Assembly: GCF_027359595.1 (NCBI RefSeq)
Contig: NZ_CP114783.1
Location: forward strand, 1,736,001-1,800,000
Direction: 5' to 3'
Origin: Prochlorococcus marinus str. MIT 0912
GTDB taxonomy: Bacteria > Cyanobacteriota > Cyanobacteriia > PCC-6307 > Cyanobiaceae
Length of the DNA stretch: 64,000 nt
The first letter of the stretch is position 1. Each line of letters starts with the position of its first letter. This document shows, one piece after another, positions 58,182 to 63,019 of the stretch. A model generated the notes under the pieces. That model was not told where the DNA came from. It saw only the letters and a program-made list of their open reading frames with translations, and made no database searches. A program made the position numbers and the translations under genes.

Positions 58182-58358
58182 ATGAACGATCCTGGGGCTT
58201 TATTTTTTATTCTCATGGCTGGGTTGGCCGGGACTATGACTTTGATTTATTTCCCTTTGAGGATATTTCTTACAGCCACGGCAAGAAGCAGAAGATTAAA
58301 ATTATTGCAGCGAATAAGAAGATTGAGAGATGAATTAGGACAGCCTATTCAAAATTGA
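58182..58358 (+). CDS. 58-aa membrane protein with basic C-terminus
   Basis: A short frame from ATG 58182 encodes MNDPGALFFILMAGLAGTMT, a single membrane helix to about residue 30, then a strongly basic amphipathic tail (TARSRRLKLLQRIRRLRDEL). The clean helix-plus-positive-tail layout and its place divergent from groL support a real gene. No family name known to me. Function unknown; a membrane anchor with a cytoplasmic helix is all that can be said. Confidence 0.65.
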   Translation: MNDPGALFFILMAGLAGTMTLIYFPLRIFLTATARSRRLKLLQRIRRLRDELGQPIQN

Positions 58359-58378
58359 TCTGCTCAACTCATGAGTTA

Positions 58379-58570
58379 TTACAAGCGCGGTAGACAACAG
58401 CCTATAAACCAATCTACATAAAGGATCCCTGTAGGGTTGGCTCTTGATTCTTTAACGATTGGAGTTGGAAACTTAGATGCATAGATTTCAATAGCCACGA
58501 GCCGACCTGATAGCAGAGCCAATGGAACTGAAGGAATAGCTAAAGCAGTAGTTTTTAATGCAAGATTCAT
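58379..58570 (-). CDS. 63-aa hypothetical protein
   Basis: A minus-strand frame from ATG at 58570 has a hydrophobic N-terminal half (LALKTTALAIPSVPLALLSG), then EIYASKFPTPIVKESRANP and GILYVDWFIGCCLPRL. It is convergent with the 58-aa gene, with 20 bases between stops. The amino-acid pattern (Pro-Val-Pro, Asp-Trp-Phe) looks like coding sequence rather than chance, but no family is recognised and no Shine-Dalgarno is obvious. Confidence 0.5.
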   Translation of the reverse strand: MNLALKTTALAIPSVPLALLSGRLVAIEIYASKFPTPIVKESRANPTGILYVDWFIGCCLPRL

Positions 58571-58667: not shown

Positions 58668-59642
58668 TTGATTAAAATAAATGGATATAAAGTAAGAATG
58701 ACTGCAAAAAAAGATAAAAAAATATCTTGGATTATTCCTTGCTTTAATGAGGAGAAAGTAATTCTAGAAACCTTAGAAAGGATAAAAATAGTTTCAGAGA
58801 AATTAAATAAATTTGAATGGGAATTAATTCTTATTGACGATGGTAGTTCAGATAATACAAAGAGAATTATTCAGGAAATTAATGAATACCCATTTACAAT
58901 AATTTTGTTGAGTTTCTCTAGGAATTTTGGACATCAACCTGCTGTTCAAGCTGGCATAGATAACTGTTCTGGATCAGCAGCAATAATTATTGATGCCGAT
59001 TTACAAGATCCACCTGAAATAGCTGAAAGAATGATCGACAAGTGGGAAAAAGGTTATGAAGTAGTTTATGGACAAAGAACAGTAAGATACAAAGAAAATC
59101 AATTCAAAAAATTCACAGCATTTCTCTTTTATAGATTATTTAATTTCTTTTCTGGAACAAAAATCCCACTGGACACCGGCGATTTCAGATTAATTGATAA
59201 GACTGTTATTCAAGCATTACATAAACTTCCAGAGAGAGGTCGATTCATGAGGGGTTTAATATCATGGGTAGGTTTTAAACAAGTAAGTGTTAGCTATTCC
59301 AGAGATGCAAGATTTGCAGGTGTAACAAAATACCCTTTTAAAAAGATGCTTTCCTTTGCAATTGATGGCTTAACAAGTTTCTCTAGGAAACCACTCAGAG
59401 TAGCTACGTTCATAGGATTCTTTTTCTCATCGCTATCATTCTTAGGCATAGTCTATGTCTTATATGTAAGGCTGTTTACTCAAACATGGGTTGCAGGATG
59501 GGCTGCAATTTGTATGACCATCTTACTTTCAGCAGGCGTACAATTGATTTTTATAGGCATTTTGGGAGAATATGTGGGAAATATATTTTTTGAAACAAAG
59601 AATAGACCTATTTACATTATTAAAGAAAAGAATATAATCTAA
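58668..59642 (+). CDS. GT2 polyprenyl-phosphate glycosyltransferase (GtrB/DPM1-like)
   Basis: A 324-aa (315 aa from ATG 58698) membrane-anchored glycosyltransferase. Seen: WIIPCFNEEKVILETLERI, LILIDDGSSDNT (nucleotide-sugar binding), SRNFGHQPAVQAGIDNCSG, IDADLQDPPEI (DxD-type metal site), RYPFKKM-like TKYPFKKMLSFAIDGLTSFS and two C-terminal membrane helices (about 238-258 and 272-294). This is the GtrB/ArnC/dolichol-phosphate-mannose-synthase group, which loads a sugar on undecaprenyl phosphate. It is followed after 18 bases by the DUF2079 gene. The ATG at 58698 is the better start. Confidence 0.9.
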   Translation: MIKINGYKVRMTAKKDKKISWIIPCFNEEKVILETLERIKIVSEKLNKFEWELILIDDGSSDNTKRIIQEINEYPFTIILLSFSRNFGHQPAVQAGIDNCSGSAAIIIDADLQDPPEIAERMIDKWEKGYEVVYGQRTVRYKENQFKKFTAFLFYRLFNFFSGTKIPLDTGDFRLIDKTVIQALHKLPERGRFMRGLISWVGFKQVSVSYSRDARFAGVTKYPFKKMLSFAIDGLTSFSRKPLRVATFIGFFFSSLSFLGIVYVLYVRLFTQTWVAGWAAICMTILLSAGVQLIFIGILGEYVGNIFFETKNRPIYIIKEKNII

Positions 59643-59660
59643 AAAATATTTAAATAATTT

Positions 59661-61064
59661 ATGTATATTTTAAATAAAATTAGAAAAGATATTCTCTTAA
59701 AAAAAGTTCTTATAGTGGCAATTAGCTCAACATTAATTTTCTATTTACTAGCTATTTTAAAACACATATTACTTCAAAGTACAGCTTATGATTTGGGTTT
59801 GTTCGACCAATGGATTTGGCTGACTAGTAAAGGTCTTCCATCATATTCATCTATGACGGGATTACATATGCTTGCAGATCATGGTGCCTGGACACTTTAT
59901 ATTGCATCATTAATTTATAAAATAAAACCTGATTTAAATATATTATTTATTTCTCAATCTGCTTCTCTTTGCTTTACAATTGTTCCATTATACTTGCTTT
60001 GTAAAAGTAAAGGTTTAAATCAAAAAATTAGTTTTTTAATAGTATTATTTTGGCTTCTACAACCTGTTGTCTTTAATGTAAATCTATTTGATTTTCATCC
60101 AGAGGTATGGTCGATGCCTTTTATTGTTTTATATTATTATTTTGAAGAAAATGAAAATTTTATTAAATCAATTGCTTGCACATTTATAATTCTAGGAACA
60201 AGAGATGGATTAGTTCTTCTGATTTTCGGTTTTGGATTAGAACAACTTTTAAAGAAAAGATTTGGAAGGTTTTTGATGCTTTTTTCTATTTCAACATTAT
60301 GGTTCGTATTTTTAAACAATTGGCTATATCCATTGCTTAATGATGATAAAGGTTCAGTAATGGCATTAGAAAGATATTCAAAATATGGGGATACATTTAA
60401 AGAAATATTATATACTTTGTTTTTAAAACCTAATCTTGTAATCAGTAGTATTAATTGGAGTGAATCTATATTTTATATATTGATTTTATTTCTTCCTGCA
60501 TTTGTGTTTTGCAAAAGGATTTCTCTTTTTACTTTAATAAGTGGAGTTCCATTAATAATTACTAATATTCTTTCTGATAATTCGCTCCAAAGGGATTTAT
60601 TGCATCAATATAGTCTACCGATTGCACTTGTTATAGTAATTTCTGTCGTAAATGGAATTAGTCAAAATAAAGGTAAGTTAGGATTCGAAAAGAAAAGATT
60701 TCTATGGATACTTTTATGTTGGTTTGCGTTAGCGAAACCTCTTTTGTTTATTGGACCTTATTTAGGTAGATTAAACTCTATAAAACCGGCTAATGAAGCA
60801 TTTTCGGAAATCCCGATAGATTCAAATGTTATTACAACAAGTTATTTAGTTCCACACTTATCTCAAAGACAATTTATCAAATTGCCAACTAGCAATAATG
60901 ATATAAAGTCAGATTTAGAAGTATATAATGTTTTATTGCTTAATCCATTAGATCCAGGAGTGATGTCAAATAGTTATTTGCAAAATGACTATCTTAAAAT
61001 TGCTAAGGCAAATAAATGGAAATGCAAAAAATGGGAAAATAATTTAGAGCTTTGCAAAAAATAA
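59661..61064 (+). CDS. DUF2079 polytopic membrane protein, GT-C-like glycosyltransferase
   Basis: A 467-aa membrane protein with about ten to eleven helices and a short soluble C-terminus. Seen: TAYDLGLFDQWIWLTSKGLP in the first loop, with acidic residues where GT-C enzymes keep their catalytic Asp, then LADHGAWTLYIASLIY, NLFDFHPEVWSMPFIVLYYY and GTRDGLVLLIFGFG. This is the DUF2079 pattern. Inferred: it transfers the lipid-linked sugar made by the GtrB-like enzyme upstream to a surface acceptor. The GtrA gene abuts it convergently with no bases between the two stops. AT-richer than neighbours. Confidence 0.8.
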   Translation: MYILNKIRKDILLKKVLIVAISSTLIFYLLAILKHILLQSTAYDLGLFDQWIWLTSKGLPSYSSMTGLHMLADHGAWTLYIASLIYKIKPDLNILFISQSASLCFTIVPLYLLCKSKGLNQKISFLIVLFWLLQPVVFNVNLFDFHPEVWSMPFIVLYYYFEENENFIKSIACTFIILGTRDGLVLLIFGFGLEQLLKKRFGRFLMLFSISTLWFVFLNNWLYPLLNDDKGSVMALERYSKYGDTFKEILYTLFLKPNLVISSINWSESIFYILILFLPAFVFCKRISLFTLISGVPLIITNILSDNSLQRDLLHQYSLPIALVIVISVVNGISQNKGKLGFEKKRFLWILLCWFALAKPLLFIGPYLGRLNSIKPANEAFSEIPIDSNVITTSYLVPHLSQRQFIKLPTSNNDIKSDLEVYNVLLLNPLDPGVMSNSYLQNDYLKIAKANKWKCKKWENNLELCKK

Positions 61065-61451
61065 TTATTTAGCAAAGATGTATCTATTTGATAAATAATA
61101 AAAAGATAAACTATAAGTTGCCATTGATAAAATTTGTGAAATATAATAACTTACTGAAAAAATATATGTAAATACAATTAGGAAAATTAAATTTATCAAA
61201 TACGAAATCAAAAAAGCACAAATAAACTTTAATATCTGTTTTCTAATTTTCTTATCTTTACTCTTAAATACAAAATTTCTATTTAAACAAAAAGAAACAG
61301 AAATCCCAAATAGAAAGCCTATTAGATTGCTTGTAATTAAGTAGAAATTAAAAATTTCTAAAAGTATAATCGAGGTCAAATATGTGGTAAGTGTATTTAT
61401 AATGCCAGTCAAAATATACTTAAGGAATTTTTTCATCCAATAAAAATTCAA
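61065..61451 (-). CDS. GtrA-family membrane protein (putative flippase)
   Basis: A 128-aa protein with four membrane helices, the size and topology of GtrA. Seen: FLKYILTGIINTLTTYLTSI, NLIGFLFGISVSFCLNRNFV and LSFYYLSNRYIFAK, including the NRNFVF element and the helix-4 end typical of the family. GtrA proteins are thought to flip undecaprenyl-phosphate-linked sugars across the inner membrane. Placed tail-to-tail with the DUF2079 gene, forming a GtrA-GtrB-GTase set split over two strands. Confidence 0.88.
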   Translation of the reverse strand: MNFYWMKKFLKYILTGIINTLTTYLTSIILLEIFNFYLITSNLIGFLFGISVSFCLNRNFVFKSKDKKIRKQILKFICAFLISYLINLIFLIVFTYIFSVSYYISQILSMATYSLSFYYLSNRYIFAK

Positions 61452-62003: not shown

Positions 62004-62105
62004 CTAATTGGAATTTGAGTTTTAGGCATTGTGGGCAAGATTATGTAGTTTTTTCTTCAATGACCTTGTTATAACTGGCTTCTATAAAGTTAGCGAGTAC
62101 GACGG

Positions 62106-62858
62106 TTAACTCATAACCATGCCACCATCAACTTGAAGTGTCTGACCGGTTATGTAAGCAGCCGAAGGATCTGCGGCTAAAAACCTCACTGCTCCTGCAA
62201 CATCTTCAGGATTCCCGAATCTTCCAAGCGGGATAGCAGAAAGGATTGATTCAGTGTTCAGATCTTTTGTCATATCAGTTGAAATAAAACCTGGAGCAAC
62301 TGCATTTACAGTTATCCCTCTGCTTGCAAATTCTTTTGCAGCACTTTGTGTAAGACCTACTACTCCTGCCTTGGCGGCAGAATAGTTTGCTTGTCCTGGA
62401 TTGCCCATCAACCCAACGACCGAAGTGATGTTAATAATTCTTCCTTTTTTTTGCTTTAACATCTGCCTGGAAACGGCTCTTGTGCAATAAAAAACACCGC
62501 TCAAGTTTAGGTCTAAAACTTTCTGCCAATCGTCCGTTTTCATTCTCATTAAAAGGCCATCTTTAGTTATACCTGCGTTATTGACCAGGACATCAATTTT
62601 ATTATTTTTCTCCAATACTTTTTTTATTAATTCATTTACCGAGTTTTCATCTGAAATATCAGCTTGAAGTGGATATGCCTTACCCCCTAAGGAGTTTATT
62701 TCTGAAACGACTTTATTTGCATTCTCCAAAGATGAAGAATAATTGATGATTACTTCTGCTCCTTCTTTTGCTAAAAAAATCGCAATAGCCTTACCAATCC
62801 CCCTACTGGCTCCAGTTACAATTGCAATTTGACCTTCAAGTGATTTTGATAATGTCAT
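62106..62858 (-). CDS. fabG: 3-oxoacyl-ACP reductase
   Basis: FabG reduces beta-ketoacyl-ACP with NADPH in fatty-acid elongation. The product (250 aa from the ATG at 62858) has the NADPH loop VTGASRGIGKAIAIFL, LVNNAGITKDGLLMRMK, the catalytic Ser in NITSVVGLMGNPGQ, and Tyr/Lys in ANYSAAKAGV. NAVAPGFISTDMT and the C-terminal YITGQTLQVDGGMVM are standard. The open frame starts 11 codons earlier, but the ATG before TLSKSLEGQIAIV is the expected start. Confidence 0.96.
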   Translation of the reverse strand: MTLSKSLEGQIAIVTGASRGIGKAIAIFLAKEGAEVIINYSSSLENANKVVSEINSLGGKAYPLQADISDENSVNELIKKVLEKNNKIDVLVNNAGITKDGLLMRMKTDDWQKVLDLNLSGVFYCTRAVSRQMLKQKKGRIINITSVVGLMGNPGQANYSAAKAGVVGLTQSAAKEFASRGITVNAVAPGFISTDMTKDLNTESILSAIPLGRFGNPEDVAGAVRFLAADPSAAYITGQTLQVDGGMVMS

Positions 62859-63019
62859 AATCTTATGATTTTTAAAATCGTTAAAATCCAATAACTGGTT
62901 TATTTAACTTACTATTGAGCCACTTGCTTTTTGAAAAGACTTTAAGCTAAGACACCAAAAATAGTTATTTTTACTGATCGAAATATATTGAATGAATAAT
63001 CAATGGAGAGGGACCAGTT

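What the first reader, a model, noticed from the sequence alone, without database searches (positions are those of the whole stretch)
58668..61451. A gtrABC-like surface-glycosylation cassette inserted between groL-side genes and fabG
A GtrB-like GT2, a DUF2079 GT-C-like membrane protein and a GtrA flippase-like protein lie together. This is the functional set of phage-type O-antigen glucosylation (gtrA-gtrB-gtrC): load sugar on undecaprenyl phosphate, flip it, transfer it outside. Here the transferase slot is filled by DUF2079 and GtrA is on the opposite strand, tail-to-tail with no spacer. The block is flanked by a 63-aa ORF and an orphan frame, and appears more AT-rich than neighbouring genes. 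It could alter LPS and change phage or grazer recognition.
Basis: partly seen in the sequence, partly recalled or inferred. Interest (0 to 1): 0.6.

Follow-up and report, generated by a model that had tools for sequence, protein, structure and literature searches.

The report
Imported sugar-tagging cassette in Prochlorococcus island
A marine cyanobacterium carries three genes, apparently imported from a distant relative by a DNA-integrating element, that together look like a machine for adding a sugar to something outside the cell membrane.

Summary
In detail: intact GT2 (GtrB-like, +), DUF2079 (+) and GtrA (-) genes lie between a conserved 58-aa ORF beside groL and fabG, in the most AT-rich stretch of the window. 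In 17 of 31 related intervals the site is empty (11-14 bp). The same trio, GtrA inverted at 0-5 bp, occurs in four other Prochlorococcus genomes in other surroundings. In the three closest the proteins are 66-77% identical, while fabG and ispD (found in two of them) are 52-57%: horizontal transfer. DUF2079 models as GT-C (ArnT, Pmt4); the main GtrB catalytic residues are kept, one functional arginine is not. Best reading: a three-component extracytoplasmic glycosylation set with DUF2079 as transferase. A phage origin is not supported, though GT2 and, weakly, the others match phage moron families. The 'orphan frame' is the scar of a large serine recombinase; the site looks like an attachment hotspot (core AACTCAT) with other cargo elsewhere, probably two elements in tandem in one genome. 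Sugar, acceptor and effect on phages or grazers are inferred. Against a fixed partnership: 7 of 41 searched genomes with DUF2079 show no GtrA.

The parts
58182..58358 (+). conserved 58-aa ORF, left chromosomal flank of the insertion site
   Evidence: found in 25 of 31 fetched intervals (one of them rearranged), 90-100% identical; 11-14 bp from fabG in 17 of 31
58366..58377 (.). left junction AACTCATGAGTT; core AACTCAT 58366-58372
   Evidence: same CTCAACTCATGAGT left junction in G020 and G012; many empty sites read CTCAACTCATAACC
58379..58570 (-). 63-aa ORF of unknown function inside the insert
   Evidence: no Pfam, NCBIfam or PHROGs hit; no full-length DNA relative in the other 40 genus genomes
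58668..59642 (+). GtrB-like GT2, predicted undecaprenyl-phosphate sugar (probably glucose) synthase; likely start ATG 58698
   Evidence: PF00535, phrog_841, sll0501 structure 5EKP E 2e-77; D94, D96, R122, D157, R200 of GtrB-Syn conserved, R290 is N, L212 is M (alignment, residue numbers mapped by hand, relatives)
59661..61064 (+). DUF2079 membrane protein, predicted GT-C glycosyltransferase using the lipid-linked sugar
   Evidence: PF09852 2e-102; AF2 model pLDDT 89.9; ArnT 5f15 Z 18.4, 4.9 A over 406 residues; Pmt4 9i5l Z 19.1, 4.3 A over 314
61065..61451 (-). GtrA-family membrane protein, predicted flippase; likely start ATG 61436
   Evidence: PF04138 9.3e-23; only PF04138 match in the genome
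61815..62044 (-). scar of a large serine recombinase: N-terminal and C-terminal pieces meet at about 61949 in different frames (the 81-aa 'orphan frame' lies on it)
   Evidence: tblastn with the 627-aa recombinase of G012: residues 1-32 at 62044-61949 (E 0.001) and 533-577 at 61949-61815 (E 1.8e-7); G017 and G026 fragments hit the same N-terminal place, E 1.5e-5 and 1.8e-8; whole-genome hit E 5e-8
62104..62114 (.). right junction GGTTAACTCAT; core AACTCAT 62108-62114
   Evidence: present in 7 of 14 non-empty relatives plus the window, 0 of 17 empty ones; 1 match in the window, 0.03 expected by shuffles
62106..62891 (-). fabG, right chromosomal flank; its 3' end carries the attachment core
   Evidence: PF00106/PF13561; next to ispD in all 31 fetched intervals

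Best explanation
A three-component extracytoplasmic glycosylation set carried as cargo of a now immobile genomic island. GT2 puts a sugar (probably glucose) on undecaprenyl phosphate at the cytoplasmic face; GtrA moves the lipid-linked sugar across the inner membrane; DUF2079, a GT-C enzyme, transfers the sugar to an acceptor on the periplasmic side. Shown here: gene content, families, GT-C fold of the model, conserved GtrB catalytic residues, purifying selection, the same gene set in other genomes, the insertion, and the recombinase scar. Inferred: sugar, flipping, acceptor (surface glycan or protein). Also inferred: that the island was placed at the fabG 3' end by a large serine recombinase acting on a core AACTCAT, and that its recombinase was then lost by internal deletion.
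For: Families and active site; GT-C fold. The same three genes with GtrA inverted at 1-5 bp in AH-287-J03, AG-686-J21, AG-402-C22 and, split over two contigs, MIT 9201. Elsewhere in picocyanobacteria a fused GT2-GtrA protein ends 3.2-3.5 kb upstream of DUF2079 in 10 of the 35 loci, and lies about 0.1 and 2.6 kb from it in G026 and G013. dN well below dS for all three genes (window against MIT 9201: 0.135/1.67, 0.225/1.35, 0.18/1.08; dS near saturation; 0.03-0.07 against 0.25-0.44 among the three closest relatives). Transfer: proteins 66-77% identical to the three closest relatives against 52-57% for fabG and ispD in the two of them where these were found; the tree groups the window with those three at SH-aLRT 99, apart from G005/G007/G036 of its own genus. 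Island: 17 of 31 intervals empty; recombinase with PF00239 and PF07508 in G012; shared junctions; recombinase relatives in 7 of 41 genus genomes, in 6 of them at this interval (places compared); probable tandem in G012.
Against: Of 41 genomes with a DUF2079 hit searched for PF04138, 7 have none: G001, G005, G007, G018, G036, G068, G087 (the five with known completeness are 56-96% complete). G068 (AG-436-M02) matters most: its GT2 and DUF2079 are adjacent and nearest outside the split set, yet no GtrA was found. 9 distant cyanobacterial DUF2079 genes have neither GtrA nor GT2 within about 6.4-7.5 kb by my own models. 20 of 35 loci show no GtrA in the DNA held, some because the contig ends. R290 of GtrB, needed for activity there, is N here and in 4 of 5 relatives. 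Half of the non-empty sites (7 of 14) lack the right junction. No substrate or acceptor evidence. The first 32-residue recombinase match alone is weak (E 0.001).
Confidence: 0.75

Rival explanations
1. The set glycosylates a protein or lipid A/core, as ArnT, Pmt or PglB do, and does not decorate an O-antigen-like polymer. (This is a variant of the best explanation as to acceptor, so the odds overlap.)
For: Best structural neighbours are Pmt4 and ArnT, with OST/PglB close behind; in L061 the fused GT2-GtrA relative lies next to a PMT_2 protein.
Against: GT-C folds are shared by enzymes with all kinds of acceptors, so the neighbours do not choose; the genome has one Wzy_C protein (PF04932), so a polymer acceptor is possible.
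Confidence: 0.35
2. A phage-borne serotype-conversion cassette left by a decayed prophage.
For: GT2 matches 141 phage records, among them Shigella and Salmonella GtrB at 41-43% and a Listeria and a faecal phage record at 46-47%; PHROGs moron families match all three proteins: 3e-102, 2.4e-9 (partial), 2.8e-6.
Against: No DUF2079 relative confirmed in viral contigs and only weak archaeal virus hits; no GtrA tblastn match in phage records; the GT2 matches chromosomal Synechocystis GtrB as well; order and strand differ; no phage structural or replication gene recognised in the insert's ORFs scanned by Pfam.
Confidence: 0.08
3. DUF2079 is not the partner: GT2 and GtrA feed other transferases of the cell, and DUF2079 is a passenger.
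For: DUF2079 occurs without detected GtrA in 7 of 41 genomes searched and alone in 9 distant neighbourhoods.
Against: The three genes keep the same unusual arrangement in five genomes in different surroundings; there is one GtrA and one DUF2079 in the genome; all three are under purifying selection.
Confidence: 0.12
4. The interval was ancestrally filled and lost in most relatives, rather than being invaded.
For: Most of the more divergent genus members have non-empty intervals.
Against: Cargo differs from genome to genome; recombinase pieces and shared junctions mark repeated integration; the nearest kin of the cassette are outside the genus.
Confidence: 0.07

Closest known systems
GtrA-GtrB-Gtr(type) O-antigen glucosylation of Shigella and Salmonella (described in passages of PMC11127046; phage-borne forms seen)
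   Same: GtrB-type undecaprenyl-phosphate glucose synthase, GtrA, one GT-C transferase, encoded together on a horizontally acquired segment
   Different: the transferase is DUF2079; order is GT2-GT-C-GtrA with GtrA on the other strand; beside a serine recombinase scar; acceptor unknown
GtrB of Synechocystis, sll0501 (PMC4728340; PDB 5EKP/5EKE)
   Same: homologous over 302 residues, E 2e-77; D94, D96, R122, D157, R200 kept
   Different: R290 is N; L212 is M
Three-component pentofuranose systems (PMC11127046)
   Same: lipid-linked donor, flippase, GT-C logic
   Different: those use a polyprenyl phosphoribose synthase, a MATE flippase and GT136
Fused GT2-GtrA (DPMS-like) plus DUF2079 clusters of other Prochlorococcus and Synechococcus (this work)
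   Same: same domain set near DUF2079
   Different: synthase and GtrA fused in one protein; GT2 domain far from the window's (24-34% identity over part); PMT_2 and DUF2079-like neighbours in L061
Tycheposons of Prochlorococcus (recalled; not read)
   Same: integrative cargo island
   Different: no tRNA in the window; recombinase is of the serine type

Membership tests
GtrABC-type three-component glycosylation | GtrB-like polyprenyl-phosphate sugar synthase | tested here: met
   by sequence: phrog_841 3e-102; catalytic residues of GtrB-Syn kept, R290 not; activity not tested
GtrABC-type three-component glycosylation | GtrA-family membrane protein in the cluster | tested here: met
   PF04138 9.3e-23
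GtrABC-type three-component glycosylation | GT-C fold transferase in the same cluster | tested here: met
   AF2 model; ArnT Z 18.4 over 406 residues, Pmt4 Z 19.1 over 314
GtrABC-type three-component glycosylation (phage type) | gtrA-gtrB-gtr co-directional operon | tested here: not met
   GtrA on the opposite strand, last
GtrABC-type three-component glycosylation (phage type) | carried by a phage or prophage | tested here: not met
   no phage structural or replication gene recognised in the insert; DUF2079 not confirmed in viral contigs; but moron-family profile matches
GtrABC-type three-component glycosylation | modifies the O-antigen | not testable with these tools
   needs glycan chemistry
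Large-serine-recombinase genomic island | recombinase with Resolvase and Recombinase domains at the site | tested here: met
   at the site in G012, 627 aa, PF00239 and PF07508; the window itself holds only a scar
Large-serine-recombinase genomic island | occupied and empty sites with a shared short core at both ends | tested here: met
   17 empty sites; AACTCAT at both ends of the window insert; right junction in 7 of 14 non-empty and 0 of 17 empty relatives
Large-serine-recombinase genomic island | excision or integration activity | not testable with these tools
   needs an assay
Tycheposon | tRNA attachment site and tyrosine recombinase (recalled) | tested here: not met
   no tRNA in the 64-kb window; serine-type recombinase pieces

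The most novel reading that the evidence does not exclude
Phage-free serotype switching: exchangeable GtrB-DUF2079-GtrA sets move between distant Prochlorococcus clades on recombinase islands that dock at a fixed site behind fabG, can stack in tandem and then become fixed by loss of the recombinase, changing surface glycans and so the range of phages or grazers that recognise the cell.
Probability: 0.3. Interest if true: 0.72.

Novelty: new variant of a known kind. Interest (0 to 1): 0.5.

Why it matters
It gives a testable role (lipid-linked-sugar transferase) to DUF2079, a name found in no paper of the held library, and shows one way in which Prochlorococcus clades could trade surface-sugar genes. 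It also marks a docking site for large-serine-recombinase islands in this genus, with iron-uptake-like, secretion-like and TPR cargo in other genomes.

Tried and rejected
Phage origin: sought in viral contigs with the DUF2079 alignment (28 pattern matches, none confirmed) and in phage records with all three proteins; GT2 matches 141 phage records, all under 60% identity. Solved-structure sequence searches gave nothing useful for DUF2079 and GtrA. DUF2079-GtrA linkage outside picocyanobacteria: tested in 9 cyanobacterial genomes with models built from picocyanobacterial sequences, which may miss distant kin; not found. The fold match is by model only: Foldseek TM-scores are modest (0.42-0.59 by query for the 20 matches at E 0.001 or less), but the tool's note puts a typical best Z for unmatched helical models at 14, against 19.1 here.

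Literature (search listings unless said): DUF2079, 0 papers; tycheposon, 8; GtrA/GtrB three-component, 7, which led to PMC11127046; Prochlorococcus with GtrA, 4, none on this by title; Prochlorococcus with serine recombinase, 8; phage resistance and glycosyltransferase, 6; siderophore, 15, 8 listed; O-antigen, 4. PMC6102989: passages by term, no occurrence of integrase, recombinase, groL or fabG. PMC11127046 and PMC4728340: outline with abstract, and passages.

Rows dropped: the alignment A1 used 32 of the 35 loci plus the window (L085, L089, L090 partial). The tree (quick method, SH-aLRT only, with warnings on unlike letter make-up for 25 rows) kept open frames with own-model score of 180 or more and 300 aa or more, and left out L003-L006, L015, L017, L025 (duplicates) and L014, L089, L090 (partial); 50 rows. 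DUF2079 was sought in 36 of the other 40 genus genomes, GT2 in all 40. Of 41 genus genomes 33, the window's own included, gave an ispD hit; intervals were fetched for 31 of the other 32 (G063 left out, its ispD cut by a contig end). 'Non-empty' (14) includes the rearranged G021 and six with no 58-aa ORF in the DNA first fetched (G007, G009, G012, G014, G020, G026); G020 was later shown filled and the other side of G012 seen on a second contig.
Full report
WHAT IS THERE. Three open, intact genes stand at the reported place: a GT2 (PF00535, phrog_841 'GtrB-like'), a DUF2079 protein (PF09852, E 2e-102) and, on the other strand, a GtrA protein (PF04138). The stop codons of the last two abut. The block has 27.8% GC, lower than every sampled 2.8-kb stretch of the window and 4.9 s.d. 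below those away from it. The genome (G000, one contig, 1,898,947 bp) has one DUF2079 and one GtrA match and two further, weak GT2 relatives (28% and 26%).

INSERTION. In 17 of 31 related intervals a conserved 58-aa ORF and fabG are 11-14 bp apart. In the window about 3.7 kb separates them. Seven further relatives have 327-4,549 bp there, one (G021) is rearranged, and six have no 58-aa ORF in the DNA first fetched. Contents differ: TPR proteins and a carbamoyltransferase-like protein in G020, large secretion-type genes in G007, TonB/ABC iron-uptake-like genes and a 627-aa recombinase in G012, a membrane GT-like protein in G013, an FkbM-like protein in G014 (names by eye from the translations, except the recombinase). 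None of the other 40 genus genomes has a GT2 closer than 40%, and of the 36 searched for DUF2079 none has one closer than 43%; many of these genomes are incomplete.

RECOMBINASE AND JUNCTIONS. The G012 protein has the Resolvase and Recombinase domains of large serine recombinases. Against it the window shows residues 1-32 at 62044-61949 and residues 533-577 at 61949-61815, in different frames: an internally deleted copy. The first piece alone is weak (E 0.001), but fragments from G017 and G026 match the same place (E 1.5e-5 and 1.8e-8). Relatives of this recombinase occur in 7 of 41 genus genomes; in six (the window's, G009, G012, G013, G017, G020) a copy lies at this interval by comparison; in G007 it is on contigs whose place is unknown. 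The insert is bounded by AACTCAT on both sides (58366, 62108). GGTTAACTCAT stands at the right junction in 7 of 14 non-empty relatives plus the window and in 0 of 17 empty ones; the other 7 of 14 lack it, so not every insert need have come this way. The left junction CTCAACTCATGAGT is shared with G020 and G012. On a second G012 contig, which carries the 58-aa ORF side, there is also an internal right-end/core/left-end junction beside another recombinase relative, as expected of two elements integrated in tandem; that this contig joins the fabG-side contig is inferred, not shown.

TRANSFER OF THE SET. DUF2079 relatives inside the genus are at most 43% identical. The nearest are in Prochlorococcus MIT 9201, AG-686-J21 and AH-287-J03 (66-69%); GT2 is 76-77% and GtrA 68-70% identical there. 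Between the window and MIT 9201, AG-686-J21 and AG-402-C22, fabG is 57% and ispD 52-56% identical; in AH-287-J03 no ortholog of either was found. Six genus members compared have 83-95% for ispD. The quick tree joins the window to the three nearest genomes at SH-aLRT 99 and puts G005, G007 and G036 in another group. In the four genomes with the set, GtrA is inverted and 1-5 bp from DUF2079 (MIT 9201 is split over two contigs), and no groL or fabG hit lies in the flanks held. In AG-686-J21 a phage-integrase-family recombinase (PF00589) lies about 2.5 kb upstream of the GT2. dN is far below dS for each gene. That MIT 9201 is a high-light strain is recalled.

FUNCTION. The GT2 is homologous to Synechocystis GtrB, shown in PMC4728340 (abstract and passages) to put glucose on undecaprenyl phosphate. 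D94, D96, R122, D157 and R200 are kept in the window and in five relatives; R290, whose mutation abolished activity there, is N in the window and four of the five relatives (positions mapped by hand from the alignment), so lipid handling may differ. The DUF2079 model (pLDDT 89.9, 33 sequences) matches GT-C enzymes: ArnT Z 18.4 (4.9 A over 406 residues) and Pmt4 Z 19.1 (4.3 A over 314); 57 of 999 chains have Z 8 or more; the first 22 Foldseek matches are, by title, GT-C enzymes or entries holding oligosaccharyltransferase (one, 9n9j, assumed so), with modest TM-scores. Invariant acidic residues D44 and D49 follow the first long helix, where GT-C enzymes carry their catalytic acid (recalled). 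Together with GtrA this is the set of parts of three-component glycosylation as described in PMC11127046 (abstract and passages), where GtrA is called a proposed flippase.

LINKAGE OF DUF2079 WITH GT2 AND GTRA. Of the 35 loci, 10 carry a fused GT2-GtrA protein ending 3.2-3.5 kb upstream of DUF2079, and five loci (four genomes) the split set, one of them (L089) ending before GtrA; 20 show no GtrA in the DNA held, some because the contig ends. Of those 20, L060 has a close GT2 (56%) directly upstream and L068, L083 and L088 a GtrB-like GT2 (37-39%) upstream. G026 and G013 have the fused protein nearby. Against a fixed partnership: 7 of the 41 genomes searched for PF04138 (all brought in by a DUF2079 hit, in G001 and G033 a weak one) have none: G001, G005, G007, G018, G036, G068 (which holds L060) and G087; and 9 distant cyanobacteria have neither partner within about 6.4-7.5 kb.

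VERDICT. It is most likely a new variant of three-component glycosylation with DUF2079 as transferase, delivered to a recombinase docking site. A phage origin is not supported, though the families are also known from phages, and the effect on LPS, phages or grazers remains a hypothesis.

Noticed in passing
L097:1655-3535 and L147:2532-7966 (G012): An uninterrupted 627-aa large serine recombinase with TonB/ABC iron-uptake-like cargo at the same site, and on a second contig an internal junction that suggests two elements in tandem.
   Followed up: partly
L131:13262 onward and L104 up to 10281 (G020): An insert of about 16 kb at the same site with TPR proteins, a carbamoyltransferase-like protein and decayed recombinase pieces near the left end.
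   Followed up: partly
L061:1920-3062, L062, L072 and others: Fused GT2-GtrA proteins in a row with a PMT_2 protein (tested in L061) and DUF2079-like proteins, apparently a conserved glycosylation cluster of other picocyanobacteria.
   Followed up: partly
window:58182-58358: A 58-aa ORF 90-100% identical in the 25 genus intervals where it was found, without any Pfam family.
   Followed up: no
L125:2285-13210 (G018): A DUF2079 gene near a small resolvase-like protein and a 440-aa integrase-like protein (by eye), possibly another mobile island.
   Followed up: no
L059:9398-9841: GtrA of AG-402-C22 is only 35-39% identical to the other cassette GtrAs although its GT2 is 64-66% and its DUF2079 56-59% identical: possible exchange of the flippase.
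   Followed up: no
G013 contig C15:6567-8742: A GT2 40% identical to the window's lies about 1 kb from a 435-aa frame with a PF04138 match, away from that genome's DUF2079: perhaps another lipid-linked-sugar pair.
   Followed up: no
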